A DNA stretch of 64,000 nt, taken from Streptomonospora alba (lineage in GTDB: Bacteria > Actinomycetota > Actinomycetes > Streptosporangiales > Streptosporangiaceae). The stretch spans positions 1-64,000 of the forward strand of contig NZ_JROO01000029.1 in NCBI RefSeq assembly GCF_000826685.1. Reading direction: 5' to 3'. Numbering within the stretch: position 1 is the stretch's first letter; each line of letters starts with the position of its first letter. Positions 47,786-63,080 of this stretch are shown here, piece after piece. The position numbers and the translations under genes are program-made. The notes beneath the pieces were generated by a model. It was not told the DNA's origin. It did not search any database and saw only the letters and a program-made list of their open reading frames with translations.

Positions 47786-48856
47786 TCAGTTCCCGGAGTG
47801 GTAGGACTCCTGGAACGAGGGGTCGTAGACCTCCTCCACCGGCGGAGCCTGGCCCTTGAGGGCACCCTGGTCGGCGAGGATGTCGACGGTCGCCTGCCAC
47901 CGCTGCTCCTCCATCGCCCCCAGGCCGCCCTCCTCGGTGGCCGGGCTGGTGAAGGTCTGATCGATGTCGGCCTGCAGCTGCTTCTGGAAGAGGTCGGCGT
48001 TGTCGGCCTGCTCCGGTGCGGAAGCCGCGAGGATCTCCGCGGTTTCGGCCGGGTGGTCGGCGACGTACTCGAAGGCCTTGAGGTAGGCGTCGGTGAACGC
48101 CTGCACGGTTTCGGGATCCTGCTCGACCATGTCGTCGCTGGTGGTCAGGCCGGACCCGTAGGCGTCGTAGCCGGCGTCGGCGCCGAGCAGGACACTGAGC
48201 GAGCCCTCGCCGCCGGCGTGCTGGCGCAGGAGGGGGACCTCGGCGTCGACGTAGCAGATGACGGCGTCGACCTGCCCTTCGAGCAGGTAGTTCTCGTAGG
48301 GCGGGGTCACGGTGACCTCTTCGACCTTGTCTCGGTCGATGTCGTTGGCGGCCATCAGGGCCTCGTAGAAGATGTAGGTCGATCCGGCGGGGTGCACGCC
48401 GATCTTCAAGCCGCTCAGATCGTCGACCGAGCCCAACTGCACGTTGTCCTTGAGCGTGCACATCCCCAGCGGCGAGACCTGGTTGACCGCGGCCAGGGCT
48501 TGCACGGGCACGCCCTGGGAACGCGCTGTGACCAGGGAGGGCAGGTCGGCGAAGCCGAAGTCGGCCTGGCCCTTGCCGACGGTGCGCAGGGCGTCGGGCG
48601 AGCCGGAGCCGGTGGTGATCTCCTCGACCTCGATCCCGGCGTCCTCGAAGTAGCCCTTCTCCTGGGCGACGTAGAACATCCCGTGGTTGCCGCGCAGCTG
48701 GTAGTCGAGTTGCACGGTGACCGTTGTGGGGCCCTCGTCTTCGGCGCCTCCGGAGCCGCAGGCGGCGGCTGCCAGCAGGACCGCCGAAGCGGCCATGGCG
48801 GTGCTCGCGCGCAGCGCGGATCGGGTGGGCAAGCGGTGGTATCCGGTGTATGGCAT
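47786..48856 (-). CDS. NMT1/ThiY-type ABC substrate-binding lipoprotein
   Basis: A 356-residue lipoprotein: the signal ends at C33 in LLAAAACGSGG. The mature part reads TVQLDYQLRGNHGMFYVAQE, KGYFEDAGIEVEEI, KGQADFGFADLPSLVTARSQ and VDAVICYVDAEVPLL, typical of NMT1/THI5-like binding proteins that carry pyrimidine, thiamine-precursor or sulfonate ligands. ATG 48856 has GGAG about 7 nt upstream. Together with the adjacent permease and ATPase it forms an importer. Given the linked enzymes, pyridoxine, 4-pyridoxate or a related pyridine is the likely ligand. Confidence 0.85.
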   Translation of the reverse strand: MPYTGYHRLPTRSALRASTAMAASAVLLAAAACGSGGAEDEGPTTVTVQLDYQLRGNHGMFYVAQEKGYFEDAGIEVEEITTGSGSPDALRTVGKGQADFGFADLPSLVTARSQGVPVQALAAVNQVSPLGMCTLKDNVQLGSVDDLSGLKIGVHPAGSTYIFYEALMAANDIDRDKVEEVTVTPPYENYLLEGQVDAVICYVDAEVPLLRQHAGGEGSLSVLLGADAGYDAYGSGLTTSDDMVEQDPETVQAFTDAYLKAFEYVADHPAETAEILAASAPEQADNADLFQKQLQADIDQTFTSPATEEGGLGAMEEQRWQATVDILADQGALKGQAPPVEEVYDPSFQESYHSGN

Positions 48857-48938
48857 GACGTACTCCAAAGGGACATGCGCGGGGAGCGCGGGGGATGTCG
48901 GTGCGAGTGCGCGGTACGCGGCGATGACCGCGCCGGGT

Positions 48939-49784
48939 CTACTGGGATTCGGCGGTGATGTGCGGGAACCGGCGCGCGAGGGCGAACTCGGCGAGCGACA
49001 TCCCGTAGTACAGGACCAGTCCCAGCAGCGATACGAGGATCAGGGCGGAGAACATGAGCGGGGTGTCGAGCTGGGTCGACGCGAACTGGATGAGGTAGCC
49101 GAGGCCGTCGGAGGCTCCGGCGAACTCGGCGACGACGGCGCCGATCACCGCCAGCGTGATGGCGATCCGCATTCCCGCGAACAGGTAGGGCAGGGAGGTG
49201 GGGATCTGGATGCGGGCGAGGATCTGGTTGCGGGTGGCGCCGACCGACTTCATCAGCAGCAGCAGGTCCGGGTCGATGCTGCGCAGTCCGACGAGCATGT
49301 TGAGGGTGATCGGGAAGAACGCGATCACCACGACCAGCAGCAGTTTGGGTGTCACGCCGTAGCCGAACCAGAGGATGAAGATCGGGGCCAGCGCCACCTT
49401 GGGGACCACCTGGAACAGGACCACCAGCGGGTACACCGCCCGGTCGACCCAGCTGAAGCGCGCGATCACCACGGCCAGTCCTACGCCTACCGCGACGCTG
49501 ATCAGGAATCCGTAGAGGATCTCCTGGGTGGTGATCCAGGCGGCCGCGAGTAGCAACTCGCGGGAGTTCCAGGTCTCGGCGGCGAAGGCGCTCGGCGGGG
49601 CGACGACGAACTCCGAGACCCCGAGAAGGGCCACCGCCAGCTCCCACGCCACCAGCACGGCCAGGAGTAAAAGGGCGCTGGGCCAGGCGCGGGAGTACCA
49701 CCGCCGCAGCCGACCGGGGGTTGTCGACACCGGCCTGCTGTGCTCACGGGTGGGGACGCCGGGTGCCGCGGTCACCATGGTCAC
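48939..49784 (-). CDS. ABC transporter permease (SsuC/TauC family)
   Basis: A 281-residue membrane protein with about six helices. The EAA-type loop is LMKSVGATRNQILARIQIPT followed by SLPYLFAGMRIAITLAVIGA, the conserved contact with the ATPase, and FAGASDGLGYLIQFA follows. The GTG start overlaps the ATPase stop by 4 bp; an ATG two codons in is also possible. It is the translocation component of the importer that precedes the B6-degradation enzymes. Confidence 0.87.
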   Translation of the reverse strand: MTMVTAAPGVPTREHSRPVSTTPGRLRRWYSRAWPSALLLLAVLVAWELAVALLGVSEFVVAPPSAFAAETWNSRELLLAAAWITTQEILYGFLISVAVGVGLAVVIARFSWVDRAVYPLVVLFQVVPKVALAPIFILWFGYGVTPKLLLVVVIAFFPITLNMLVGLRSIDPDLLLLMKSVGATRNQILARIQIPTSLPYLFAGMRIAITLAVIGAVVAEFAGASDGLGYLIQFASTQLDTPLMFSALILVSLLGLVLYYGMSLAEFALARRFPHITAESQ

Positions 49785-50563
49785 ACCGTCGCTTTCGGTT
49801 CGAGTAGCTCGCGCAGCCGGGATGTGTAGTCGGTGAACACCGGGTCGTCGAACACCTCGCGGGTGCGCGGGCGGGGGAGGGAGATATCGAGGGTCTGCAC
49901 GAGCCGTCCGGGATCGGCGCCCATGACGTGCACCGTGTCGGAAAGGAAGACCGCCTCGCTGATCGCGTGGGTGACGAAGACGACGGTCTTGCCCGTCTGA
50001 GTCCAGATTTCGGCGAGCTTCTCGTTCATCTCGTCGCGGGTGATGGCATCGAGGGCGCCGAAAGGCTCGTCCATCAGCAGGATCTCGGGGTCCATGGCCA
50101 GTGCGCGGGCGATGGAGACCCGCTGTGCCATACCGCCCGAGAGCTGGTGGGGCAGCTTTCCGGCCGCCTCCTCAAGGCCGACGAGGGCGAGCGCGTTCTC
50201 GGCCGCCCGGAGCGACTCGGCGCTGCGGCCCTTTCCGGTGGCGACGTCGCGCAGTACGCATGCGTTCTGCAGAGCGGTCTTCCACGGCAGTAGGGCCGGC
50301 CGCTGCGGAACGAGGCCGATCTGGCGCCGGTCGACCGCTTCCGAGGGCGGTCGGCCCCCGATCGAGACCTCTCCGTCGGTGGGTTCCAGAAGCCCGCCCA
50401 GGATCTTCAGCAGTGTGCTCTTTCCGCAGCCCGACGGTCCGAGCAGGGTGACGAAGGCTCCGGGGGCGATGGTCAGGTCGAGGGCCTCCAGAACGGGCTG
50501 TGCGGTGCTGGTTCCGCCGAAGCGCATCCCGATGCCACGTGCGGAGATGAATCCCGATTCCAT
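49781..50563 (-). CDS. ABC transporter ATP-binding protein (NitT/TauT family)
   Basis: A 260-residue ABC ATPase. Walker A is GPSGCGKST, the signature is LSGGMAQR, Walker B is ILLMDEPFGALD, and the switch histidine lies in VFVTHAISEAVFLSDTVHVM. It energises the importer and is the first gene of the minus-strand block, so the promoter of the whole unit should lie in the gap above 50563. Confidence 0.92.
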   Translation of the reverse strand: MESGFISARGIGMRFGGTSTAQPVLEALDLTIAPGAFVTLLGPSGCGKSTLLKILGGLLEPTDGEVSIGGRPPSEAVDRRQIGLVPQRPALLPWKTALQNACVLRDVATGKGRSAESLRAAENALALVGLEEAAGKLPHQLSGGMAQRVSIARALAMDPEILLMDEPFGALDAITRDEMNEKLAEIWTQTGKTVVFVTHAISEAVFLSDTVHVMGADPGRLVQTLDISLPRPRTREVFDDPVFTDYTSRLRELLEPKATV

Positions 50564-51117
50564 GCGGCCGGTCCTTCCTTGTACTGAGCGGACGACAGCA
50601 GCGCTCCGACGGTTATCACTCTCTAATAATGTTCTATTAGATCCACTACGCTAAGAATCGAGATCTTGGGAGTCAAGGGGGTCTGTGCAAGAAAATCCCT
50701 GGTCACAGCATGTTTACAAGGGAGAGAGAAGTAGCTCCGCGTGTTCGCTCCGTCACGCGCCACCCTGGGTTCGGGTGCGAAACGACTGCTGTGTCAGGCT
50801 TTCCGTTGACTCGGTCAGAATGGGGCAGATGCGTAAAATTGCATCAAATCAGACATTTGGTCTCGGGGGTGGCGAGGTGGCGAACCCCGTTGAATGCGGT
50901 CCGCCGGCCGTCGGATCCCCGCATGGAGGCGACGGGCAGGACGCCGTGGGGGCGGTTTCGCCGCGCGCGGCCGCGGATGCGGGTGAAGCGGTGTCCAGCG
51001 ACCGCATGTGCGCAAGGCGGCGCGCTGTGAACGCGTTCCGCCTGATGCTCCGGTCCGTGCCGGGGCGGCGTTCGAGAACGGTCAGCCCGTCGAAAGAGCC
51101 ACCGCCGACTGCACTTT
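50564..51117. other. Promoter region of the B6 block and gene-free stretch
   Basis: About 550 bp. The part near 50600-50850 is relatively AT-rich and carries the inverted repeat at 50622-50641. No frame on either strand has both a ribosome site and a recognisable domain. The downstream boundary is the convergent-side stop of the CPBP gene. Confidence 0.4.
50622..50641. promoter_or_regulatory. 20-bp inverted repeat, candidate IclR operator of the B6 block
   Basis: TCTAATAATGTTCTATTAGA: 7-bp perfect arms (TCTAATA/TATTAGA) separated by 6 nt, 59 bp upstream of the first gene of the importer-degradation unit. Its AT-rich arms stand out from the surroundings. The size fits IclR- or GntR-type regulators; the IclR gene at the other end of the block is the obvious candidate. 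Confidence 0.6.
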
Positions 51118-51867
51118 TCAGCCGTACAGGGTGAGCACGGCGACGACGGCCGCGGTGTTCCACAGGCAGTGGCTGACCATCGAGGCGGTCACGCGGCCTG
51201 TGAGCATGAAGAGGCCGACATAGACGAGTCCGGCCACGGCGATGGCGACCGCTGCCGACCAGCTGGAGGGCACATGCAGCAGGCCGAAGAGCAGCACCGA
51301 CAGCACCGCGGCCACGCCCACCGCGCGGCGGCGCCGGCGGAAGGCCTCCGGTAGAGCTCCGATCATGAATCCGCGGAAGTAGAGTTCCTCGGCGACGCCG
51401 CCCCCGATGACGCCGAGCACGAGCGTGGCGGCCAGGGCGGCCCCGCCGGCAGCCGTGTTGTCCAGGACCTCGCGGGCCTCGGGGCTGTCGGCTCCACCGG
51501 CCATCGGAACGAGGACGCCGAACTCCAGCAGCAACCGCGGCACCACGGCTGCGGCGCCCAGCGCGGAGTCGCGGACCCAGTGCCGCGCGCTCAGTCCGAC
51601 GTCTACCCACCGCAGACGGCGGCGGTGCAGCCACCACGCCGTGATGGCGCATACCAGCAGCAGCTCGGCCAGCGCCACGGTGATCAGCACCGCGGGCCCC
51701 TGGCCGGTGAAGACCCCTGCCGCCAGCGGAGGCGCCACGAAGACGATCAGTGCCCCGCCGAGGAACACCAGGCTCGCCCGCACGGGCGCGGGACGTCGCT
51801 CCGGCGCCCGAGCGTCCGGCCGCGCCTCAGGTGTCGGTTCCTCGCGCTGTTCCCACTCCCTCGCCAT
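51118..51867 (-). CDS. CPBP-family intramembrane metalloprotease
   Basis: A 249-residue protein with about six to seven helices after a polar 30-residue N-terminus. The three CPBP (Abi) motifs are clear: E160-E161 with R165 in VAEELYFRGFMIG, H198 in FGLLHVPSS, and H233 with N237 in SMVSHCLWN. Members are intramembrane proteases related to CaaX prenyl endopeptidase. The start ATG lacks a Shine-Dalgarno sequence but has TAGGCT 8 nt upstream. It stands alone, divergent from the GAF/PucR-type regulator. Confidence 0.87.
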   Translation of the reverse strand: MAREWEQREEPTPEARPDARAPERRPAPVRASLVFLGGALIVFVAPPLAAGVFTGQGPAVLITVALAELLLVCAITAWWLHRRRLRWVDVGLSARHWVRDSALGAAAVVPRLLLEFGVLVPMAGGADSPEAREVLDNTAAGGAALAATLVLGVIGGGVAEELYFRGFMIGALPEAFRRRRRAVGVAAVLSVLLFGLLHVPSSWSAAVAIAVAGLVYVGLFMLTGRVTASMVSHCLWNTAAVVAVLTLYG

Positions 51868-51965
51868 GGGAATGGAGCCTATGCCTGGATACCGGCCGGT
51901 CTGGGAAAACCGACGGCGACCGGGCTCAGTGGCGAGCCGGTAACGAGAAGGGCATCCTGTCTGAC

Positions 51966-53912
51966 ATGGAAACGAGTGCCGACGAGCAGGGGCGGGGCAT
52001 TCCGGTGACGCATGTGGTCGAGTTGCTCGACGCTGTGGCTGCCGACTCCGAGGAGACCGCCGATGAGGCGCTGGAGCGGTCGAGTGGCAAGCTCCCGGCC
52101 GAAGACCTGGCGGCGCTGACGAACCGTGTTCGCAATCTCCGCTCCTTGCTGGCGCGGTGGCGGCGTCGCGGTCTGGAGTTGTCGGCCTTGTTCTCCAGCG
52201 CCCGCGAGTTGGCCGAGCTGCGTGACACCGACACGCTGCTGCACCGTCTCGTAGAGCGAGCGCATGACCTGATGGGTACGGATGTCACTTACCTGTCGGA
52301 GTTCTATGAAGGCAGCGACGAGCTGCGAGTGCGTTCGACTCTGGGAGCGGTCGCGCCGTCGTTCCGGGAGCTGCGGGTTCCTCCGGGGATGGGCCTGGCG
52401 AGTCAGGTTGTGCGTACTCGATGCCCGCAGTGGACGTCCGTCTACCACGACAACCGTTCGATTCAGCGTGAGCAGGGAATCGATGCGGCTGTGGCGGCGG
52501 AGGGACTCGTCTCCCTGCTCGGTGTACCGCTTGTGGCGGGAGGCCGGGTGCTGGGAGTGCTGTTCGCCGCCAACCGCAGCAAGCACGAGTTCGTTCCCGA
52601 TGAGATCGCCCTGTTGAGCGCTTTCGCCGATCACGCGGCGGTGGTGCTGCAGACCACGCGACTGCTGGAGCAGGCGCGCGTCGCGGCCCAGGAGGCCGAG
52701 CGGGCGAATTCCATACTGGCGAGCAACGTCACCGCGATGGAACGCGCCAGCACGGTACACGAGGATCTCACCGCCGTTGTGTTGCGGGGTGGCAGCGCAC
52801 ACGAGGTGGCGGAGACGCTGGGGAAGGCGCTGGATCGCCCGGTGACGATCCTCGACCGAGAACTCGCGCTCATCGTGGAGCCGGACAACGGCGGGATGCA
52901 CTATTGCGAGACAGACGGCGACCTACCGCATTCCGTGCACGAGGCGATCGCAGCGAGCCGGCTGTCGGGTCGATGCGTCTTCATCGAGGATACTGCGCCG
53001 CTTCCGGAGGTCGCGGTAGCCATCGTAGCCGCCGAAACCTTCCTGGGGGCGGTACTCGTCGGATACGGCGACCTCGAACTCCGCGAAGTCGAGCAGCGCA
53101 CGATCGAACGTGCCGCACAGATCGCCGCCCTCGTCGAGGTCAAGCAGGAGGCGGTGGCCGCAGCCGAGGATCGCGTGCGCGGAGAGTTGCTGTCCGACAT
53201 ACTGCGTGCCGATCAGCACCGCTGGCAGGAGTTGCTGCTCAGGGCGCGAGCCCGCGACGTGCGGTTGGACGAGTTGCGTTCGGTGGTGGTGGCGACGGTC
53301 CCCGCCGACGGGCGGAGACCGGCCCTCGAAGGACTGCGGAGAGCGGTTGAGGGCGGGTTGGTCGGGGAGCGGGACGGCATGCTGGTGATCCTCTCGCCTC
53401 AGGATGACCCCATGACGGCCGCGCACGAGGTGCGGCACACGCTCAACCGCGTGCAGCGGGGACCGGTGCTGGCCGTCGCGGGCCCGCCGGCTCCCTCAGT
53501 CGAGGCGCTGGGGACGTGCTTCGAAGCCGCCCGCCGGTGTGTCGAGCTCATGCGCAAGCTGAATACGACGGAAGGGACGGCCGACGCGCGGGCATACGAG
53601 CCCTACATGGCGATGTTCGGCACCGGCGGCGAACACCTGTCCGGTTTCATCGAATCGACGATCGGGCCGGTGCTGCGGTGGGACGAGGAGCGCGGCACCG
53701 AGCTGTTCGAGACGCTGTCCGCCTTCGCCGACTCCCACGCGAGCCCCAGCCGTACGGCGCGGTTCCTCCACGTCCACATCAATACGGTGACACAGCGGCT
53801 GGATCGGATCAGCGCCCTGCTGGGCCCGGAGTGGCGTGAGCCCGAATCGCTGTTCCGTGTCTCCGTCGCCGCCCGCCTGCACGCCCTGGCACGGCCGAAG
53901 ACGGTGGGATGA
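51966..53912 (+). CDS. GAF-domain regulator with PucR/CdaR-type C-terminal helix-turn-helix
   Basis: A 648-residue regulator. After an N-terminal helical stretch, a GAF domain occupies about residues 75-240 (SARELAELRDTDTLLHRLVE, ASQVVRTRCPQWTSVYHDNR, LGVPLVAGGRVLGVLFAANR). A coiled segment and central domain follow, and the C-terminal PucR-type helix-turn-helix is SPSRTARFLHVHINTVTQRL. Such proteins activate catabolic genes when the GAF domain binds a small molecule. It lies directly upstream of the HMG-CoA reductase operon on the same strand and is its likely regulator. Confidence 0.87.
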   Translation: METSADEQGRGIPVTHVVELLDAVAADSEETADEALERSSGKLPAEDLAALTNRVRNLRSLLARWRRRGLELSALFSSARELAELRDTDTLLHRLVERAHDLMGTDVTYLSEFYEGSDELRVRSTLGAVAPSFRELRVPPGMGLASQVVRTRCPQWTSVYHDNRSIQREQGIDAAVAAEGLVSLLGVPLVAGGRVLGVLFAANRSKHEFVPDEIALLSAFADHAAVVLQTTRLLEQARVAAQEAERANSILASNVTAMERASTVHEDLTAVVLRGGSAHEVAETLGKALDRPVTILDRELALIVEPDNGGMHYCETDGDLPHSVHEAIAASRLSGRCVFIEDTAPLPEVAVAIVAAETFLGAVLVGYGDLELREVEQRTIERAAQIAALVEVKQEAVAAAEDRVRGELLSDILRADQHRWQELLLRARARDVRLDELRSVVVATVPADGRRPALEGLRRAVEGGLVGERDGMLVILSPQDDPMTAAHEVRHTLNRVQRGPVLAVAGPPAPSVEALGTCFEAARRCVELMRKLNTTEGTADARAYEPYMAMFGTGGEHLSGFIESTIGPVLRWDEERGTELFETLSAFADSHASPSRTARFLHVHINTVTQRLDRISALLGPEWREPESLFRVSVAARLHALARPKTVG

Positions 53913-54004
53913 ACGAGCAACCCACCCGAGCGCTTCCCTCGGGGCGAGAACGTCGCGCAATCGGCTGACCTGGGAGTTGTCGGAACCCGGCCTGGGTGAT
54001 TCAC

Positions 54005-54041
54005 ACGTGTACGGTCGTCCGGAAACGTGTAGTTCGACCGT
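54005..54041. promoter_or_regulatory. Operator-like repeats upstream of the HMG-CoA reductase operon
   Basis: Two direct copies of ACGTGTA (54005-54011, 54025-54031) and an overlapping inverted repeat ACGGTCG (54011-54017) with CGACCGT (54035-54041) lie about 130 bp before the HMG-CoA reductase start. They may bind the GAF/PucR-type regulator encoded just upstream. Confidence 0.45.
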
Positions 54042-54171
54042 GTTGCTGAGGTCACACTCCCCCTAGCGTTGCCTCTAACCCGGCGGCTTTGCGGCACCGG
54101 GGAGACCGCCCCCGGCCGTGCGTCGGTACGGCGCGGCCCGCACGGCTTCGGCCGAGGACAGGGAGGTATGT

Positions 54172-55446
<1,275 letters not shown>

Positions 55447-55498
55447 CCACCGGCCACCCGGCGACAACCAGCACCGAGCCGAAGGAGACGCAGCAACC

Positions 55499-57553
55499 AT
55501 GACTCTGCACGTGGGCATCGATGTGGGGGGCACGTTCACCGACGCGGTCGCCGTCCACGACGGCCGCGCCGTGCGCGGCAAGGCATTCTCAACACCCAAC
55601 GTCACGACGGGTATCCTCGACGCCCTCGGCGTCCTCGAAGGTCGGCTCGGCGTGGCCACGGGCGACTTCTACCCGCAGATCGACCGTTTCGTCCTGGGCA
55701 ACACGATCGTCACCAACGCCGTCGACGAGCAGAAGTACTCGGCCGTCGGCCTGCTGACCACGCAGGGATTCCGCGACACGCTGCGCATCGCCCGCTCAGC
55801 GCGCGACGACGAGCGCGACCCGCACCGGACGGCACCGCCGCCCGCGGTCATCGATCGCAACCGCATCGTCGAGGTCCCCGAACGCATCGACTCCCACGGC
55901 GACGTCCTCGTCCCGCTGCGCGAGGACGCCGTGGCCGAGGCCGTCGACCGTGTGCTTGCGACGGGAGCGGAATCCCTGGCGGTGTGCCTGCTGTGGTCGT
56001 TCCGCAACCGCCAGCACGAGGAGGCGATCGGCAGATACCTCGAAACCCACCATCCGGACCTGCCCTACACCCTGTCCAGCCGGCTCACGCCCGTGTATCG
56101 CGAGTACGAGCGGATGGTGACCACAACGCTCGATGCGGCGGTCAAGCCGATCGTGGCACAGCACTTCGATCATCTCGCCGAGGAGCTCGCCGCCCGAGGC
56201 CTGCGCACACCTGTGCAGATTATGCAGGTCCACGGCGGCTTCCTGTCAGCGGAGGAGACCAGCAGGGCGCCGATCGCCATGTTCAATTCCGGTCCGGTGG
56301 GAGGAGTGACCGGCGCGCGCCTGCTCGGCCAGCACCTGGGGCGGCACCGGGTGCTCACGGCGGACATGGGGGGAACCAGTCTGGATGCGGCCGCCATCAT
56401 CGACGACGAGTTCCGTGTGCTGCCGCGCGCCGAGATCGGCGGACTGCCGACCAGCCTGACCGCGGTGGACATCGAGACGATCGGAGCCGGAGGCGGCAGC
56501 CTGGCCTGGGTCGACGGCCGGGGTGTCATGCGGGTCGGTCCGCACAGCGCCGGTTCCGTGCCGGGACCGGCCTGTTACGGAAAAGGCGGTGACCGGCCTG
56601 CCGTCACCGACGCCGCTCTGGTGATGGGCCTGCTCAACCCCGACTACTACCTCGGCGGTACCGTCACCCTCTACCAGGACGAGGCCCGCGACGCGGTACA
56701 CCGCCACCTCGCCGAGCCGCTCGGGCTGTCCACCGACGCTGCCGCCCACGGTGTCTATCGCCTCGCCGTGTCGCAGATGGCCAACGCGGTCCGCAAGATC
56801 ACCGTGAACCGGGGGCACGATCCCCGCGATTTCACCCTGGTCGGTTTCGGTGGGGCGTGCGGGCTGTTCGCGGCCGCCATCGCCGCGGAGATCGGGGTGG
56901 GAGAAGTGATCATTCCGCGCAACGCCGCAGTGTTCTCCGCCTACGGCCTCATGCACGCCGACTCCGTCTTCTCCGCAGTGCAGACCACGCCGTGGACGTT
57001 CTCCGAGCCGGCCGCGCAACTGGAAAAGGAGTTCTCCGCTCTGGAAGCGCGAGCGCAGGATTGGTTCGAGTCCGAGAGCATCCCCGCCGAGCGGCGCGAG
57101 ACGCATCGCGAGGCGGACATGAAGTTCCTGGGGCAGATCTTCGAAGTCACCACGCGGCTGCCGAGCAAGGTATTCGACGATGAGGACAAGGACGTGCTGC
57201 GTCGACGCTTCATCGAGGACTACGAGGCCGAGTTCGGCGTCGGGACGGCGTGGACCGAGGCCGAGGTGCTACTCGTCAATTCCCGGGTCAAGGCGGTCGG
57301 GCGCACCGAGGCTCAGCGGATCACGGACAGTGGAAGCGGCGGCGAGCAGCATTTCGACGATGCACGGGAATGCGTCGACCCCGTCACCGGAGAACGTCGC
57401 AGCGTCGAGGTCCACCGCGGGTTCGGCGCCTTGGGCGCAGCGCACGGTCCCTGCCTCCTGGAAGAACCCGACACCACCGTGTACGTGCCCGCAGGGGCGG
57501 TTGTGGAGGTGGTCGACGGAGGCCATTTCTCGATCCGCCTGAACGCATCGTGA
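55499..57553 (+). CDS. Hydantoinase/oxoprolinase family protein, HyuA type
   Basis: A 684-residue HyuA-type subunit. HVGIDVGGTFTDAVAVHDGR is the ATPase motif; VLGNTIVTNAVDEQKYSAVG, FNSGPVGGVTGARLLG, TADMGGTSLDAAAII and IGAGGGSLAWVDGRGVMRVG are family signatures, and FGGACGLFAAAIAAEIGVGE is the acetone-carboxylase/hydantoinase-type C-terminal segment. ATG 55499 follows GAAGGAG. With the next gene it should form an ATP-dependent ring-opening hydrolase or carboxylase. In this operon the substrate could be a lactone or CoA-free acid related to mevalonate; that is inference. Confidence 0.88.
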   Translation: MTLHVGIDVGGTFTDAVAVHDGRAVRGKAFSTPNVTTGILDALGVLEGRLGVATGDFYPQIDRFVLGNTIVTNAVDEQKYSAVGLLTTQGFRDTLRIARSARDDERDPHRTAPPPAVIDRNRIVEVPERIDSHGDVLVPLREDAVAEAVDRVLATGAESLAVCLLWSFRNRQHEEAIGRYLETHHPDLPYTLSSRLTPVYREYERMVTTTLDAAVKPIVAQHFDHLAEELAARGLRTPVQIMQVHGGFLSAEETSRAPIAMFNSGPVGGVTGARLLGQHLGRHRVLTADMGGTSLDAAAIIDDEFRVLPRAEIGGLPTSLTAVDIETIGAGGGSLAWVDGRGVMRVGPHSAGSVPGPACYGKGGDRPAVTDAALVMGLLNPDYYLGGTVTLYQDEARDAVHRHLAEPLGLSTDAAAHGVYRLAVSQMANAVRKITVNRGHDPRDFTLVGFGGACGLFAAAIAAEIGVGEVIIPRNAAVFSAYGLMHADSVFSAVQTTPWTFSEPAAQLEKEFSALEARAQDWFESESIPAERRETHREADMKFLGQIFEVTTRLPSKVFDDEDKDVLRRRFIEDYEAEFGVGTAWTEAEVLLVNSRVKAVGRTEAQRITDSGSGGEQHFDDARECVDPVTGERRSVEVHRGFGALGAAHGPCLLEEPDTTVYVPAGAVVEVVDGGHFSIRLNAS

Positions 57554-57605
57554 ACGGACTCAGCATCGTTTGCCGGTCCGCCGCACACATTCCCAGGAGA
57601 CGGCC

Positions 57606-59774
57606 ATGACCATGAACTCCACGCACGTCCCCGCCGGGTACGACCCCGTCACCCTCGAAGTCCTTCGGATGCGCCTGGACTCGATCGTCGAGGAGATGGG
57701 CAGCGCGATGATCCGGTCCTCCGGCTCACCGGTGATCACCGAATCCGGCGACTTCAACACGGCATTGTTCGACCCCGAAGGCAGGATCTACTCCTACTCG
57801 GACTTCGTCCAGTTCCACATCGGATCCGGCAGCGTGGCGGTGCAGAACCTCGTCGCGGAGATCAAGGGCGAACCGCTTCACCCCGGCGACGCGTTCATCT
57901 GCAACGACCCCCACACCGCCGGCTCGGCGCACCCGCCGGACACCAACGTCATCTCGCCGATCTTCTACGGCGACGAACTCATCGGCTGGGCGCAGTCGCA
58001 GGCGCATCTGGTGGACGTGGGCGGAATGACCCCGGGCGGCTTCGCGCCGGGAGCCTACGACTGCTTCAGCGAGGCGTTGCGGCTTCCCCCCGGAGTGAAA
58101 ATCTTCGAGCAGGGCAAGCCCATCGAGTGGGTCCGCCGCGTGCTGCTGAACAACGTCCGCGTCCCCACACTGTTCTGGAACGACGTGCGCAGCCTGGTCG
58201 CCAGCAACAACACCGGGATTCGCAGGCTGTTCAGCACCGTCGAGGAATTCGGACTCGCCGCGTTCCGCGAGTACACGCGGGTCAACTTCGAAATCGCCGA
58301 GCGCGTGGTGCGCGAGCGGATCGCCCTGCTCGCCGACGGCGTCTACGAGGCGGACGAGTGGACCGAGCACAACGGGCACATCAACGAGCTCTACCGCGTG
58401 CACTGCACTATGACCAAGGCCGATGACCAGATCACGATGGACTTCACCGGCTCCAGCCCTCAGACCGACGGCTTCATCAACCTCAGCTACGGAACCCTGG
58501 TGGGTAGCGTCGCCAGCGCACTCGTGCCCATCCTCGCCTGGGACGTGCCATTCAACGAGGGTGTGATGACCGCCTGCACCGTTCTGGCCGAACAGGGCTC
58601 CCTGGTCAACCCCGTGCCGCCGGCACCCATCAGCAACGGCCACCTCACGACCGGGGCCCGTGTCAGCCGACTCGTCACCAAGCTCCTCAACGAGGCGGCC
58701 AGGACCAGCACCAGTGAGCTGATACGCGCACGTACCCAAGGAGTGTGGGCGGACTCCTGGACCGGCGGCATCTCCGCAGGCACGCGCGACGACGGCGAGT
58801 ACTTCGTGCTGTTCAACATGGACGGCGGAGGCATGGGCACCGGTGCCCAGCCCGTCACCGACGGCCTCGACTGCGGCGGGATGATGACCCAGGTCAACAA
58901 CTCTCTGCCCGATGTAGAGATGAACGAGATGCTCTACCCGGTGCTGTACCTGTGGAAGCGGCTCAATACCGCGAGCGCGGGACACGGCGCCTACCGGGGC
59001 GGGCAAGGGCACGAGTTCGCCTGGAAACTGCACGGCACCCCGGAGGTGATCCAGACGGTGTTCGCCCCCAACGCGCAGGTGGTCGCCGACGGGTTCGGCG
59101 GCGGATTCCCCGGCGGTGGCAGCGGACATGCGGTCTGGCGCACCACCAACATCAACGACCTGCTCGACCAGGGGACCGTCCCGACCGACACCGACCTGAC
59201 CGCGGGCGCGCGCGAGCTCCTGGAGATCAACCAGCAGGGCGTCACGATCGGCTCCGACGACGTGTTCATGCAGTGGGTCGCCGGAGGAGGCGGATACGGC
59301 GACCCACTGCTGCGCGCCCCAGATCTGGTCGCACGCGACGTGGCGGACGGATACGTCACCGACGCCGTCGCGGCGAAGGTCTATGGGGTGGTTCTCGTCG
59401 ACGGAGAGGTCGACGGCACCGAGACCGAGCGCCGACGCGCAGCCCTGCGGGTCGAGCGCCTCGGGGGCCGCGAGCCCGCAGTCTCGATCGCGCCCGGAGC
59501 AGCTCCCGGGAGCTCGGCTCCGCAACGCGACAGCGACGGCTGGTACTGCCCCGCAAGCGGCGCTCGGCTGAGCACCGACGACGACTGGCGCGGTGACGTG
59601 CTGACTCGATCCAGCGCCGCCGCGCAGCGGTTGTCCGAGCTCGGTGTGCGAGTGCGCTCGCGGGACGCCGAGCCGGCCGTGCTGATCGACGAGCTGGTAA
59701 GCCCGGCGTGCGGCACGCTGCTGGAGACGCGCATCCGCGTGGAATCGCGCGGGAAGGAGGCGGAGACGCTGTGA
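57606..59774 (+). CDS. Hydantoinase/oxoprolinase family protein, HyuB type
   Basis: A 722-residue HyuB-type subunit. It starts with VTLEVLRMRLDSIVEEMGSA and RSSGSPVITESGDFNTALFD, contains FICNDPHTAGSAHPPDTNVI and AHLVDVGGMTPGGFAPGAYD, and ends with a GGGGYGDPLLRAPDLVARDV segment typical of the family. A short Zn-ribbon-like tail (GWYCPASG) is present. ATG 57606 has AGGAGAC upstream. It partners the HyuA gene 52 bp before it and overlaps the CoA-transferase start by 4 bp. Confidence 0.88.
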   Translation: MTMNSTHVPAGYDPVTLEVLRMRLDSIVEEMGSAMIRSSGSPVITESGDFNTALFDPEGRIYSYSDFVQFHIGSGSVAVQNLVAEIKGEPLHPGDAFICNDPHTAGSAHPPDTNVISPIFYGDELIGWAQSQAHLVDVGGMTPGGFAPGAYDCFSEALRLPPGVKIFEQGKPIEWVRRVLLNNVRVPTLFWNDVRSLVASNNTGIRRLFSTVEEFGLAAFREYTRVNFEIAERVVRERIALLADGVYEADEWTEHNGHINELYRVHCTMTKADDQITMDFTGSSPQTDGFINLSYGTLVGSVASALVPILAWDVPFNEGVMTACTVLAEQGSLVNPVPPAPISNGHLTTGARVSRLVTKLLNEAARTSTSELIRARTQGVWADSWTGGISAGTRDDGEYFVLFNMDGGGMGTGAQPVTDGLDCGGMMTQVNNSLPDVEMNEMLYPVLYLWKRLNTASAGHGAYRGGQGHEFAWKLHGTPEVIQTVFAPNAQVVADGFGGGFPGGGSGHAVWRTTNINDLLDQGTVPTDTDLTAGARELLEINQQGVTIGSDDVFMQWVAGGGGYGDPLLRAPDLVARDVADGYVTDAVAAKVYGVVLVDGEVDGTETERRRAALRVERLGGREPAVSIAPGAAPGSSAPQRDSDGWYCPASGARLSTDDDWRGDVLTRSSAAAQRLSELGVRVRSRDAEPAVLIDELVSPACGTLLETRIRVESRGKEAETL

Positions 59775-61018
59775 ACAGGCTGCCCGAGCCACCCGGCACG
59801 GAGACCACCGCGCGCGGCCCGCTCGCCGGAGTGGTCGTCCTCGACATCACCCGCGTGGTGGCCGGCCCGTTCTGCTCCATGATCCTGGCGGATCTGGGGG
59901 CGACGGTCATCAAGATCGAACGGCCCGGCGAGCCCGACTACGCGCGGGACTTTCCCCCGTTCCTCGAATCCGACGGCGGTGACCGGTTCAGCGCCTTCTT
60001 CGCCCAGTACAACCGCAACAAGATGGGCCTGACGCTCGATCTCGCCGCCGCAGAGGGCAAACAGTTGCTGAAGCGGCTCGCCGAGCACGCCGACGTGCTC
60101 GTCGAGAACTTCCGCCCGGGCACGATGGACAAGCTCGGCCTCGGCCACGTCGACCTCCAGCACGTCAATCGCAGGCTCGTCTACACTGCGATCTCGGGCT
60201 TCGGGCAGACCGGGCCGTACCGGCGGCGCCCGGCGTTCGACAACAGCGCGCAGGCCGCGGGAGGCCTGTGGTCGATGAACGGGAACCCCGACCAGCCTCC
60301 GACGCGGGTGGGCACCATCATCGGAGACCTCGCGGCGACCATGTACGCCGTGATCGGCACACTGGCAGCACTGCGGCACGCCGAACGCACCGGGGAGGGC
60401 CAGCTCGTCGATGTCGCCCAGCAGGACTCCGTGCTCTCCCTGACCGAGAGCGCCGTCGTGTCCTACACGGTCGAGGGAAAGACCGCCAAGCCCTTGGGCA
60501 ACGCCCACCCGTTCGTCCGCCCCTACGGGCTCTATCCCTGCAAGGACGGGTACGTGTTCTTCGGCGGGTACACCGACAAGTTCTGGAGACTGACGTGCGC
60601 CATGTTCGGGGAGCCTGAGGCGGCCGACGATTCCGAGATCGACACCATGGCCAAGCGATTCGATCCGGAAGTCTACGAACGGCGCATCCGCCCCCTGCTG
60701 AACCGGTGGATGGCCCAGCGTACGCGGGCGGAGTTGGAGGAGCTGGCCGGCGAGCAGGTCCCGCTCACCGCGATCAAGGACATCGGCGATGTCGTCAATG
60801 ATCCGCACATCAAGGCGCGCGACATGATCGTCGATGTGGAGTACCCCGAGCTCGGCACGCTTGAGATGTTCGGGCAGCCGATCCACCTCGGTGCCACTCC
60901 GGCCGAGCCCCGCGGGCTCGCGCCCGCTGTCGGCGAGCACACCGACACGCTCCTGCGGGCGATGGCGGGGCTGTCCGATGACGAGATCGCCGCGCTACGC
61001 GCCTCCGGGGTGGTGTAG
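59771..61018 (+). CDS. Class III (CaiB/BaiF-type) CoA-transferase
   Basis: A 415-residue family III CoA-transferase. VVVLDITRVVAGPFCSMILA, DLGATVIKIERPGEPDYARD, FAQYNRNKMGLTLDLAAAEG and VLVENFRPGTMDKLGLG form the N-terminal half; the catalytic aspartate is in FDNSAQAAGGLW, and EGQLVDVAQQDSVLSLTESA follows. It moves CoA between organic acids. GTG 59771 overlaps the HyuB stop (GTGA). In this operon it could activate or release HMG or a related branched acid as a CoA thioester. Confidence 0.9.
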   Translation: MNRLPEPPGTETTARGPLAGVVVLDITRVVAGPFCSMILADLGATVIKIERPGEPDYARDFPPFLESDGGDRFSAFFAQYNRNKMGLTLDLAAAEGKQLLKRLAEHADVLVENFRPGTMDKLGLGHVDLQHVNRRLVYTAISGFGQTGPYRRRPAFDNSAQAAGGLWSMNGNPDQPPTRVGTIIGDLAATMYAVIGTLAALRHAERTGEGQLVDVAQQDSVLSLTESAVVSYTVEGKTAKPLGNAHPFVRPYGLYPCKDGYVFFGGYTDKFWRLTCAMFGEPEAADDSEIDTMAKRFDPEVYERRIRPLLNRWMAQRTRAELEELAGEQVPLTAIKDIGDVVNDPHIKARDMIVDVEYPELGTLEMFGQPIHLGATPAEPRGLAPAVGEHTDTLLRAMAGLSDDEIAALRASGVV

Positions 61019-61822
61019 GTGGGCATCACCGTCGAACGCGAGGGGGCGGTGGCGGTCATCCGGTTCGACCGCCCGGACAAGCTCAACGCCTTGACCCTGG
61101 CAATGTACGACGAGCTGGCGGCCGCCTTCGCCGAGGTCCGCGACGACGCCTCGATCTCCGCCGCTGTACTGACCGGCCGAGGTGACCGCGCCTTCTGCGT
61201 CGGGGCGGACCTGGGCGAGTCCATCCCGGCCCTGGCCGAAGGACGGTTCGACATCTCCCGTTGGGACGGCGCCCACCAGAAGCACACCGACCTCTTCAAA
61301 CCCGTGATCGGTGCGGTCAACGGGCTCTGCCTGGGCGGCGGATTCGAGATCCTGCTGTCGACGGATCTGCGCGTCGCCAGCGAGCACGCCGAGTTCCAGT
61401 TCCCCGAACCCGGGGTCGGCGTGGTGCCCGCCGGTGGCACGCTCGTTCGGCTCACGCGCCAGATTCCGTACGCGTGGGCGATGCGGCTGCTTCTGCTCGC
61501 CGAGCGCATCGACGCCCGGGAAGCGTTGCGCTATGGGCTGCTGAACGCCGTGGTTCCGGCCGATGAGGTACTGCCCACCGCGGTCGAGTGGGCGGAACGC
61601 CTCGCGGGACTGAGCGGGACGGCGATCGCCACTATCAAGGAGGCGGTGCTGCGGCTGGCCGACCTTCCGTCCCGGGAGGCGTTCCAGAGCGAAGCCCGCT
61701 ACGGGCAACGCGCGTTCGAAAGCCCGGACGCCCGCGAAGGGCTGGCCGCATTCCAGCAGAAACGCGCCCCCGTGTTTCCGTCGCGCCAGTCATCGACGAG
61801 CGATGAGAGCGCCGAGGAGTGA
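61019..61822 (+). CDS. Enoyl-CoA hydratase/isomerase family protein
   Basis: A 267-residue crotonase-fold protein. AVIRFDRPDKLNALTLAMYD, AFCVGADLGESIPA and GAVNGLCLGGGFEILLSTDL form the oxyanion-hole regions, and FPEPGVGVVPAGGTLVRLTR has the glutamate position of hydratases. GTG 61019 directly follows the CoA-transferase stop. It would hydrate or dehydrate a CoA thioester; 3-methylglutaconyl-CoA/HMG-CoA interconversion is a reasonable hypothesis next to HMG-CoA reductase, though other enoyl-CoA substrates are equally possible. Confidence 0.88.
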   Translation: MGITVEREGAVAVIRFDRPDKLNALTLAMYDELAAAFAEVRDDASISAAVLTGRGDRAFCVGADLGESIPALAEGRFDISRWDGAHQKHTDLFKPVIGAVNGLCLGGGFEILLSTDLRVASEHAEFQFPEPGVGVVPAGGTLVRLTRQIPYAWAMRLLLLAERIDAREALRYGLLNAVVPADEVLPTAVEWAERLAGLSGTAIATIKEAVLRLADLPSREAFQSEARYGQRAFESPDAREGLAAFQQKRAPVFPSRQSSTSDESAEE

Positions 61823-62810
61823 CAGTGAGGATGTGTCGCGGTTCTCTGCCGGTTAGTCGACTCGCCGGTATGCGCTCCTCGCACCTGCCCCAGTACACGG
61901 TCAGGTTCACTCTGGGAGTCCTCGCTTACCATCGGCACCGGTTTCGCCGCGCGCTCGGCATCAGCCTGATCCGCAGCGCACTGCGTCCCGAGTGGCGAAC
62001 GTCCTCACACCGAAACGCGCCCCGGTAGGTCGGAGCGTGCCCCGGTGGGCCGGTGCCCGCGAGCGCGCGGGCCCTGACCGTAGAGGTGCCGCCGCGGAGC
62101 CGGGGACGGCGTAAGTCGATACCGCTGTCGTGGGGGCGGTTCGCCACGGGCCAGCATCGGCGTCCTACTCGATCGCCGCCCGTTTCCCGCGTTGATCTTG
62201 TACCTGCGGTGACATGTGATCGCTCACAATGACCGCAGGTACAAGATCAACGCTGATGCGGGCGGTGCCCTGGGAACAATTCGGGCAAGTCGGGCCCCTA
62301 GTGGTCGGCAGTGCGCCCGGAGCGCGTCCATGCACGCGGAGCCGTCGGCGCCGCCCCGGATCTGCGGTGCCGTCGCCGCCTACGTCGGGCGCTGGGCCAT
62401 TCGCCGGCAGCACCGACTCCTGCCCACCCCGGCCATCCGCCGCCCTCGCCGCCACCGTCAGGCGACGAACCCCGCGCCGGCAGAGCCGTCTTCCGCCTCG
62501 GGAACCGTCCCTGCCCGGATGCCGTGCGCGCGAGCTCCAGGGGTGCGTCGGCCCATGCGGATGCGCCGCCCTTGACGGGACCGTCCCACGCCTACGCCCG
62601 AGGGCACGGGTGTCTTCGAGGCGCGGCCACCTCTGACAGGGCGGGTCCAGGTGTACACCGCGATGGCCCCGTCGGCGAGTATGGCGAAGAGAGCGGGCAG
62701 GATCTCCGTCGTGATTCGCCCGAACGCCTCTCGGGGGACGCTGCCCCCGCCTTGACCGGCGGCACGACTCGAACTCCGCCGCCAGCACGGACAACGACCC
62801 GCCTCGCTGG
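61823..62810. other. Long gene-free region
   Basis: Almost 1 kb with no frame that has both a ribosome site and a recognisable domain. It contains a perfect inverted repeat (62189-62253). The translated frames are Arg/Pro-rich and look like non-coding high-GC DNA. It may be the remains of a deleted gene or the site of a past insertion. Confidence 0.45.
62189..62253. repeat. Perfect 22-bp inverted repeat with 21-nt loop
   Basis: The left arm 62189-62210 (GCGTTGATCTTGTACC..., ending TGCGGT) and the right arm 62232-62253 (beginning ACCGCA, ending GATCAACGC) are fully complementary. It lies in a gene-free region. It is too far from a gene end to be an ordinary terminator; a REP/MITE-type element or the footprint of a mobile element is possible. 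Confidence 0.7.
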
Positions 62811-63080
62811 ATGCGCCGGCGCCTTGTCGTCGGCATGGTAGCCGTCCTGGCAATGATCACCGCAGTCCCCGCGGCTACCAGCAGCCGAGGTCGTCGTCCC
62901 CGGGCAGACTGCCTTGGCCGCCTTCCGCGGGCGGAGGTTCTTCCCGAGACGGTCGCCGAATACGGCTGTGTCGGATTCACCGGAACGAGCCCTGGCACTA
63001 TGAGCTGCGTGACAGGGGCGATCGTGGTTGCCCAGCGGATGTATGCCGACCCCACCGAGGACCCGAGGACGCAGCAGTGA
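62811..63080 (+). CDS. Possible small secreted protein upstream of the EEP gene
   Basis: An 89-codon frame. The N-terminus RRRLVVGMVAVLAMITAVPA resembles a signal peptide; the rest contains four cysteines. Its TGA overlaps the GTG of the next gene by 4 bp, which favours real coding. There is no Shine-Dalgarno sequence before ATG 62811, and the composition is Arg-rich, so it could also be a chance frame or the tail of a decayed gene. No homology is recognised. Confidence 0.3.
   Translation: MRRRLVVGMVAVLAMITAVPAATSSRGRRPRADCLGRLPRAEVLPETVAEYGCVGFTGTSPGTMSCVTGAIVVAQRMYADPTEDPRTQQ

What the first reader, a model, noticed from the sequence alone, without database searches (positions are those of the whole stretch)
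51966..61822. HMG-CoA reductase operon with HyuA/HyuB hydantoinase, CoA-transferase and hydratase: a possible new mevalonate or branched-acid catabolic system
Five genes run in one direction with short gaps or 4-bp overlaps after a GAF/PucR-type regulator: class II HMG-CoA reductase with all four catalytic residues, HyuA, HyuB, family III CoA-transferase and crotonase-fold hydratase. The operon has no mevalonate kinase, HMG-CoA synthase or HMG-CoA lyase, so it is neither a standard isoprenoid operon nor the known Pseudomonas mevalonate pathway (reductase plus lyase). An ATP-dependent HyuAB enzyme could open a lactone-like form (for example mevalonolactone) or carboxylate an intermediate, with the transferase loading CoA and the hydratase handling HMG-CoA/3-methylglutaconyl-CoA. 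The pathway is inference; the gene identities are not.
Basis: partly seen in the sequence, partly recalled or inferred. Interest (0 to 1): 0.82.

Follow-up and report, generated by a model that had tools for sequence, protein, structure and literature searches.

The report
Mevalonate catabolic operon with hydantoinase module
An actinobacterium carries a rare operon that probably breaks down mevalonate-like acids, perhaps ones derived from fungal iron-binding molecules, by turning a dehydrated acid back into mevalonate and then into acetyl-CoA and acetoacetate.

Summary
The gene identities are right: GAF/PucR regulator, degradative HMG-CoA reductase (HMGR), HyuA, HyuB, family III CoA-transferase (CaiB-type), crotonase. 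The operon is catabolic: HMGR exceeds the degradative cut-off (434.7 vs 260 bits); the genome has Dxr and no detected HMG-CoA synthase. 'No lyase' is only local: 11 of 14 type-A loci carry HMG-CoA lyase, Sciscionella's same-order operon included, and the host has one elsewhere. CaiB orthologs sought without HMGR lie beside HMGR in 23 of 24 places (the last contig ends). The hydratase is a crotonase or, in eight loci, an unrelated FAS1_DH-type protein, so hydration is its likely role. Best reading: HyuAB frees a 3-methyl-branched unsaturated acid, most likely anhydromevalonate; CaiB and hydratase convert it to mevalonate by CoA cycling (reverse of fungal SidI/SidH); HMGR and lyase finish. Three of 11 proteobacterial versions sit beside hydroxamate-type siderophore receptors (0 of 23 controls; post hoc), but any TonB receptor is not enriched (4/11 vs 3/23, p 0.18), and no such genes were seen in 31 actinobacterial stretches. 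Substrate and direction are inference; nothing was assayed.

The parts
51966..53912 (+). GAF + PucR-type HTH regulator (REG)
   Evidence: Pfam GAF_2 60.5, HTH_30 58.6 bits; homolog near HMGR in most actinobacterial loci
54172..55446 (+). degradative class II HMG-CoA reductase
   Evidence: TIGR00532 434.7 bits, cut-off 259.95; best PDB matches 6dio and 1qax (source organisms Delftia and P. mevalonii recalled); only PF00368 match in genome
55499..57553 (+). HyuA, ATP-binding subunit of an ATP-dependent cyclic-amide/lactone hydrolase (substrate inferred)
   Evidence: Pfam Hydantoinase_A 298.7 bits; best PDB N-methylhydantoinase 7hk5 1.2e-114, 6yra 1.1e-92 (6yra as caprolactamase recalled)
57606..59774 (+). 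HyuB, partner subunit
   Evidence: Pfam 422.5 bits; best PDB 7hk5 1.1e-54, 6yra 1.2e-50
59771..61018 (+). family III CoA-transferase (CaiB type)
   Evidence: Pfam 414.8 bits; PDB 4ed9 3.3e-67, succinate-hydroxymethylglutarate CoA-transferase 9br6 2.8e-64; orthologs beside HMGR
61019..61822 (+). crotonase-fold enoyl-CoA hydratase
   Evidence: Pfam ECH_1 202.8 bits; two crotonase Glu positions kept by eye, motif recalled
47786..48868 (-). NMT1/SsuA-type solute-binding protein of an ABC importer (link to operon not shown)
   Evidence: Pfam NMT1 159.2 bits
48939..49784 (-). ABC permease of the same importer
   Evidence: Pfam BPD_transp_1 110 bits
49781..50563 (-). ABC ATPase of the same importer
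   Evidence: Pfam ABC_tran 117.7 bits

Best explanation
The operon is a catabolic route that ends in mevalonate oxidation. HyuAB uses ATP to open a cyclic or amide-like precursor and release a free 3-methyl-branched 2-enoic acid, most likely anhydromevalonate (5-hydroxy-3-methylpent-2-enoate; its cis form closes to a lactone, recalled chemistry). The CoA-transferase makes the CoA thioester, the hydratase adds water to give mevalonyl-CoA, and the transferase passes the CoA to the next acid, releasing mevalonate (the logic of carnitine CaiB/CaiD, and the reverse of fungal SidI/SidH). HMGR, run with NAD+ and CoA, oxidises mevalonate to HMG-CoA, and HMG-CoA lyase (beside the set in most type-A relatives, elsewhere in this genome) splits it to acetyl-CoA and acetoacetate. 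Shown by sequence: identities, degradative type of HMGR, conservation of the set. Inferred: all substrates, directions and the role of HyuAB.
For: HMGR over the degradative cut-off, one HMGR match in the genome, no HMG-CoA synthase match, Dxr present. HMG-CoA lyase beside the set in 11 of 14 type-A loci, L020 and L147 being near-copies. CaiB searches that took no account of HMGR position gave 24 places beyond those already held, one of them the Murinocardiopsis locus met again; 23 have HMGR in the fetched stretch, the other (L174) is cut by its contig end. The hydratase is a crotonase (types A and C) or a FAS1_DH-type protein (8 type-B loci) beside CaiB, which fits hydration of a CoA ester made by CaiB. 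CaiB-ECH is tied to two separate HMGR clades. Brevibacterium aurantiacum and Agrococcus hold both a plain HMGR-lyase-TctA locus and a CaiB-hydratase-HMGR locus, so the module probably handles something other than mevalonate itself. Luteimonas marina and a second genome of its order carry the trio with a TonB receptor (Luteimonas: best PDB FhuE 3.6e-94), a PF00756 esterase (Luteimonas: best BES 2qm0 1.5e-35, then siderophore triacetylfusarinine C esterase 1.5e-26) and an acetylornithine deacetylase-type gene. G1298 has it beside FecCD, Peripla_BP_2, an esterase and a FoxA/FhuA-like receptor. Coprogen and TAFC contain anhydromevalonyl groups made through SidI and SidH (PMC3709128, passages).
Against: Any TonB receptor within about 10 kb of HMGR: 4 of 11 CaiB+ proteobacterial loci versus 3 of 23 CaiB- loci with a profile search, p 0.18; the earlier single-sequence search had missed two controls. 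Receptors of the FhuE/FoxA kind: 3 of 11 versus 0 of 23, p 0.028, but chosen after sight and two are kin. L192's receptor is Cir/BtuB/heme-like. L071, a control, has TonB, FecCD and Peripla_BP_2 matches without CaiB. None of 31 actinobacterial stretches, window included, matches the siderophore seeds. SidH is far from ECH's best PDB match (1.6e-28 versus 1.3e-52). HyuAB is missing in types B and C. CaiB of L169, and HyuA and REG of L170, are split over reading frames. No substrate was tested.
Confidence: 0.48

Rival explanations
1. The CoA-transferase, hydratase and lyase form a route for a free dicarboxylic acid: 3-methylglutaconate (acyl group of ferrichrome A, recalled) or HMG is loaded with CoA, hydrated to HMG-CoA and split, like itaconate degradation; HMGR handles mevalonate as a parallel input.
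For: CaiB's PDB hits include succinate-hydroxymethylglutarate CoA-transferase (2.8e-64); best NCBIfam models are succinyl-CoA:mesaconate and succinate-glutarate CoA-transferases, below cut-off; the lyase adjoins in 11 of 14 type-A loci.
Against: HMGR is in 32 of the 33 CaiB+ loci held, the other being cut by a contig end, while the lyase adjoins in only 2 of 8 type-B and 3 of 11 type-C loci; HMGR would be unneeded.
Confidence: 0.2
2. Catabolism of a nitrogen-bearing cyclic compound (lactam, imide or peptide-like) unrelated to siderophores whose carbon skeleton enters at mevalonate level; HyuAB is the ring-opening enzyme.
For: HyuAB resembles N-methylhydantoinase and caprolactamase; dipeptide-type ABC importers, Amidohydro_3 and HyuA-like/S-Me-THD genes recur in some type-A and type-B loci; no siderophore genes seen in actinobacterial stretches.
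Against: No known compound of this kind is pointed to; some proteobacterial loci point to hydroxamates.
Confidence: 0.16
3. A plain mevalonate or mevalonolactone operon: HyuAB opens mevalonolactone, HMGR oxidises mevalonate, CaiB and ECH serve a side reaction.
For: Five actinobacterial loci have HMGR, lyase and a TctA-cluster transporter without CaiB (TctA by Pfam for L018 only).
Against: CaiB and a hydratase accompany HMGR in more loci than HyuAB does; two genomes hold both kinds of locus.
Confidence: 0.12
4. HyuAB is an ATP-dependent carboxylase of the acetone/acetophenone type that builds the branched acid.
For: Detectable homology to both carboxylases.
Against: 290.1 and 151.6 bits against acetophenone carboxylase cut-offs of 1500; higher similarity to hydrolases.
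Confidence: 0.03

Closest known systems
Pseudomonas mevalonii mevalonate catabolism (HMGR + HMG-CoA lyase; operon recalled)
   Same: Degradative class II HMGR; most type-A relatives also carry the lyase
   Different: Adds HyuAB, CoA-transferase and hydratase; lyase not in the window
Carnitine/crotonobetaine CaiB-CaiD pair (mechanism recalled)
   Same: Works like: family III CoA-transferase plus crotonase interconvert a hydroxy acid and its dehydrated form with CoA recycling
   Different: Below both carnitine model cut-offs; weak PDB hit 9.8e-27
Fungal SidI/SidH anhydromevalonyl-CoA branch of siderophore synthesis
   Same: Same proposed intermediates, run backwards; SidH matches the crotonase
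   Different: SidI is a ligase, here a transferase is proposed; SidH is not the nearest relative
Caprolactamase CapAB / N-methylhydantoinase / 5-oxoprolinase
   Same: HyuAB architecture and ATP motifs; nearest solved structures
   Different: Below the caprolactamase cut-offs; substrate unknown
Itaconate degradation (CoA-transferase, hydratase, lyase; recalled)
   Same: Same order of logic for an unsaturated branched acid
   Different: HMGR added; different enzymes

Membership tests
Degradative class II HMG-CoA reductase (TIGR00532) | score over curated cut-off | tested here: met
   434.7 vs 259.95 bits
Degradative class II HMG-CoA reductase (TIGR00532) | catalytic Glu, Lys, Asp, His of P. mevalonii enzyme | tested here: met
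   identical in alignment; roles recalled
Degradative class II HMG-CoA reductase (TIGR00532) | oxidative direction with NAD+ | not testable with these tools
   Asp146 equivalent kept, no assay
P. mevalonii-type mva operon | HMG-CoA lyase in the operon | tested here: not met
   no lyase in window; present in 11 of 14 type-A loci
Isoprenoid mevalonate pathway | HMG-CoA synthase in genome | tested here: not met
   0 matches to PF01154 in a 97.5% complete genome; Dxr present
Caprolactamase CapAB (NF050156/NF050157) | score over cut-off 1000 | tested here: not met
   467.6 and 236.6 bits
Acetophenone carboxylase | score over cut-off 1500 (ApcC, ApcD) | tested here: not met
   290.1 and 151.6 bits
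HyuA/CapA ATP site | DxGGTxTD, DxGGT and GxxPGP motifs (PMC8453981 passages) | tested here: met
   DVGGTFTD, DMGGT, GSVPGP in alignment
HyuB/CapB metal site | Asp-His-Asp-His ligands (PMC8453981 passages) | not tested
   no residue-by-residue alignment of HyuB was printed
Succinate-glutarate CoA-transferase (NF052585) | score over cut-off 750 | tested here: not met
   297 bits
Carnitine CaiB/CaiD | equivalog score | tested here: not met
   142.6 vs 413 (CaiB); 153.6 vs 500 (ECH)
Siderophore catabolic island | siderophore uptake or esterase genes beside the operon | tested here: not met
   none in the window with proteobacterial seeds; present in L198+L023, L214+L191 and L196

The most novel reading that the evidence does not exclude
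A rare but widely scattered bacterial pathway for eating the anhydromevalonyl arms of fungal hydroxamate siderophores (coprogen, fusarinines, TAFC): esterase and amidase steps free the acid or its lactone, HyuAB opens the lactone with ATP, CaiB plus one of two unrelated hydratases turn it into mevalonate, and degradative HMGR plus lyase finish it. This would explain why some MEP-pathway bacteria keep an HMG-CoA reductase.
Probability: 0.27. Interest if true: 0.78.

Novelty: new variant of a known kind. Interest (0 to 1): 0.6.

Why it matters
It gives degradative HMG-CoA reductases a concrete, testable input other than mevalonate itself, suggests a link to fungal siderophores in part of the family, and predicts a role for a distinct clade of HyuAB enzymes now annotated only as 'hydantoinase/oxoprolinase family'.

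Tried and rejected
Isoprenoid synthesis: rejected. Carboxylase reading of HyuAB: disfavoured. A residue said to differ between CapA and one acetophenone carboxylase subunit (Asp/Lys, passages) was looked at and dropped: carboxylase chains printed also have Asp. PepSY-like genes in L178 and L179 (by eye) were not counted, since L179 has a copper-chaperone-like gene near by. The Azospirillum plasmid receptor is FemA-like and that locus has no CaiB, so it stands in the control group. Seed sensitivity is uneven: FecCD and esterase seeds find each other, the two Peripla_BP_2 seeds do not, and the FemA-like receptor seed finds no other. A FecCD family search of 31 genomes listed only the best matches, so places beside the operons cannot be read off in full; it shows none in G939 and one weak match in Luteimonas (G404). 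Promoter/terminator scan 50500-63000: none found, uninformative here. Paper searches: no listed title or abstract start describes bacterial catabolism of anhydromevalonate or this gene set; many subscription papers are not in that library. Seen as passages only: PMC8453981, PMC13370337, PMC13001223, PMC3709128, PMC11800396; the last is on peptidic siderophore degradation by bacteria, has no mention of mevalonate, and its passage says Aspergillus degrades fusarinines by esterases.
Full report
What is there. The window lies in a 5.9 Mb, 110-contig actinobacterial genome. Six genes run on the plus strand: a GAF/PucR regulator, HMGR, HyuA, HyuB, a family III CoA-transferase (CaiB) and a crotonase (ECH), identities confirmed by Pfam. 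Likely starts give a 4-nt overlap HyuB/CaiB and a direct abutment CaiB/ECH. An NMT1/SsuA-type ABC importer and a CPBP protease lie upstream on the other strand.

Direction of HMGR. The enzyme passes the degradative NCBIfam model (434.7 bits, cut-off 259.95) and aligns along its length with PDB 6dio and 1qax with all four catalytic residues and the Asp146 equivalent kept (residue roles and source organisms recalled). It is the only HMGR match in the genome; no HMG-CoA synthase match is found and Dxr is. PMC13370337 (passages) states that the B. cenocepacia and P. mevalonii enzymes use only NADH. A catabolic role is therefore very likely; direction was not assayed.

Lyase. tblastn of relatives' HMG-CoA lyases finds none in the window. 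The Sciscionella operon (L015) has the same six genes at 70-86% identity in the same order, followed by a lyase overlapping ECH (369.5 bits, cut-off 246). The host genome has a lyase at another place (L152, 322.3 bits). L170 and L171 also show no adjacent lyase.

Relatives. In these and later loci I distinguish: type A (HyuAB, CaiB, ECH, HMGR): window, L015, L016, L020, L022, L036, L147, L168, L170-L175, 14 loci; L174 shows no HMGR because the contig ends inside HyuB, L020 and L147 are near-copies, and HyuA and REG of L170 are split over frames. Type B (CaiB, FAS1_DH-type hydratase, HMGR, no HyuAB ortholog): L059, L148, L176-L181, 8 loci. Type C (CaiB, ECH, HMGR, no HyuAB beside them): L023, L024, L026, L169, L191-L197, 11 loci, from Proteobacteria or from the orders of proteobacterial centres; CaiB of L169 is split over frames. 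Plain loci without CaiB, with lyase and a TctA-cluster transporter: L017, L018, L019, L021, L034. L028, a partial MAG contig, has ECH, HMGR and lyase but no CaiB ortholog at 1e-100 in its genome. The window's exact gene order recurs in L015, L170, L171 and L172; elsewhere order and strand vary while the set stays together. The lyase adjoins in 11 of 14 type-A, 2 of 8 type-B and 3 of 11 type-C loci.

CaiB-first test. Searching for CaiB alone at strict E limits gave 13 genomes besides the window among 345 of its order (1e-130), one new among 250 of the order of Luteimonas (1e-130), six new among 347 of the order of Xanthobacter (1e-130), two of 72,556 plasmids (1e-120), and second loci in Agrococcus and Brevibacterium aurantiacum, whose genomes were already known to hold an HMGR elsewhere (1e-100): 24 places, one of which is, by its coordinates, the Murinocardiopsis locus already held. 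HMGR is in the fetched stretch in 23; the 24th (L174) is cut. The limits leave out remoter CaiB relatives. HyuA orthologs (57-86%) occur in 6 of 15 other HMGR-locus genomes; in a phylum sample of 396 genomes, 77 have a match at 1e-100, but only the own genome above 44% identity.

Tree. In a quick tree of 104 HMGRs, all 13 type-A rows, all 8 type-B rows, 8 of 11 type-C rows, the 5 plain loci and L028 form 35 rows on one side of a branch with SH-aLRT 99. The other 3 type-C rows (L169, L194, L197) group with an Aurantimonadaceae HMGR (L041) in another clade; each has a MocR-type regulator gene. So CaiB-ECH is found with two HMGR lineages.

Why hydration before HMGR. The core is CaiB + hydratase + HMGR; HyuAB and lyase come and go. 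The hydratase is replaced by an unrelated family in type B (FAS1_DH_region, E 4.3e-7 for L059; the others by 43-76% identity to it). A transferase plus hydratase that hands a free acid to HMGR gives all enzymes a job if the acid is anhydromevalonate. The opposite branch is known in fungi: SidI and SidH make anhydromevalonyl-CoA from mevalonate, and coprogen and TAFC carry that group (PMC3709128, passages).

Siderophore links. Luteimonas marina (L198+L023) and a second genome of its order (L214+L191) carry the trio with a TonB receptor (Luteimonas: best PDB FhuE 3.6e-94, pyoverdine receptor 7e-82), an MFS, a PF00756 esterase (Luteimonas: best BES 2qm0 1.5e-35, then siderophore triacetylfusarinine C esterase 1.5e-26), an acetylornithine deacetylase (Luteimonas over its cut-off), an amidase (L214 over a cut-off) and AraC- and Lrp-like regulators (by similarity and eye). 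FecCD is absent in G939 and only weakly matched in Luteimonas, so the MFS may be the inner-membrane step there. G1298 (L196) has the set beside a fused FecCD permease, a Peripla_BP_2 protein, an ATPase, an esterase and a FoxA/FhuA-like receptor. Counts: any TonB receptor within about 10 kb of HMGR, by profile, 4 of 11 CaiB+ versus 3 of 23 CaiB- proteobacterial loci (p 0.18). Receptors of the FhuE/FoxA kind, L023, L191 and L196, which match one another's seeds, 3 of 11 versus 0 of 23 (p 0.028); the control receptors L048, L071 and L182 match neither seed even at E 10. This last contrast was chosen after sight and includes two kin. L192 has a receptor of Cir/BtuB/heme type. Esterase-like and ArgE-like matches: a weak esterase match also in control L062; ArgE-like in CaiB+ L191 and L194. 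In 31 actinobacterial stretches (some overlapping the same loci) none of these genes is seen with proteobacterial seeds of uneven sensitivity. The link is suggestive for part of the Proteobacteria and unproven for the window.

HyuAB. Scores place it nearer N-methylhydantoinase and caprolactamase than the carboxylases, below the equivalog cut-offs reported. Some type-B loci carry instead a HyuA-like protein plus an S-Me-THD protein (L148 by Pfam; L059 HyuA-like by Pfam; L180 by eye). An ATP-dependent opening of the lactone of cis-anhydromevalonate is my favoured role; a lactam or peptide-ring role is not excluded.

Verdict. Gene identities confirmed; catabolic use of mevalonate very likely; the full scheme with CaiB/hydratase upstream of HMGR and anhydromevalonate as the acid about 0.48; siderophore origin about 0.27.

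Noticed in passing
window 62189-62253: Perfect 22-nt inverted repeat with 21-nt spacer downstream of the operon; could be a terminator or a mobile-element end.
   Followed up: no
window 47786-50563: NMT1/SsuA-type ABC importer on the opposite strand; similar importers lie near the set in L168 (permease 37%, binding protein 27%, ATPase 47%) and L197 (36%, 25%, 43%).
   Followed up: partly
L015 9-6747: Molybdenum hydroxylase large and FAD subunits, nitrilase, luciferase-like and DUF2848 genes upstream of the Sciscionella operon.
   Followed up: no
L147 and L021 (Brevibacterium aurantiacum, G402); L148 and L019 (Agrococcus, G400): Two HMGR loci in one genome, one plain with lyase and TctA-cluster gene, one with the CaiB-hydratase module.
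   Followed up: partly
L016 11309-12436: SMP-30/gluconolactonase-family gene between HMGR and lyase in a Streptomyces: a possible lactonase.
   Followed up: no
L026 1310-3289, L169 20380-22350: PNPOx/ferredoxin-reductase/2Fe-2S flavoprotein near type-C loci (Pfam for L026; L169 annotated as pyridoxamine 5'-phosphate oxidase family).
   Followed up: no
G087:C4:2725-3888 and G109:C4:46963-48123: Degradative-type HMGRs (47% to the window) over cut-off in other genomes of the phylum sample; the G087 frame holds one TAG.
   Followed up: no
L170 2305-7770; L169 15221-16428: REG and HyuA (L170) and CaiB (L169) are split over reading frames: decay or sequencing error.
   Followed up: no
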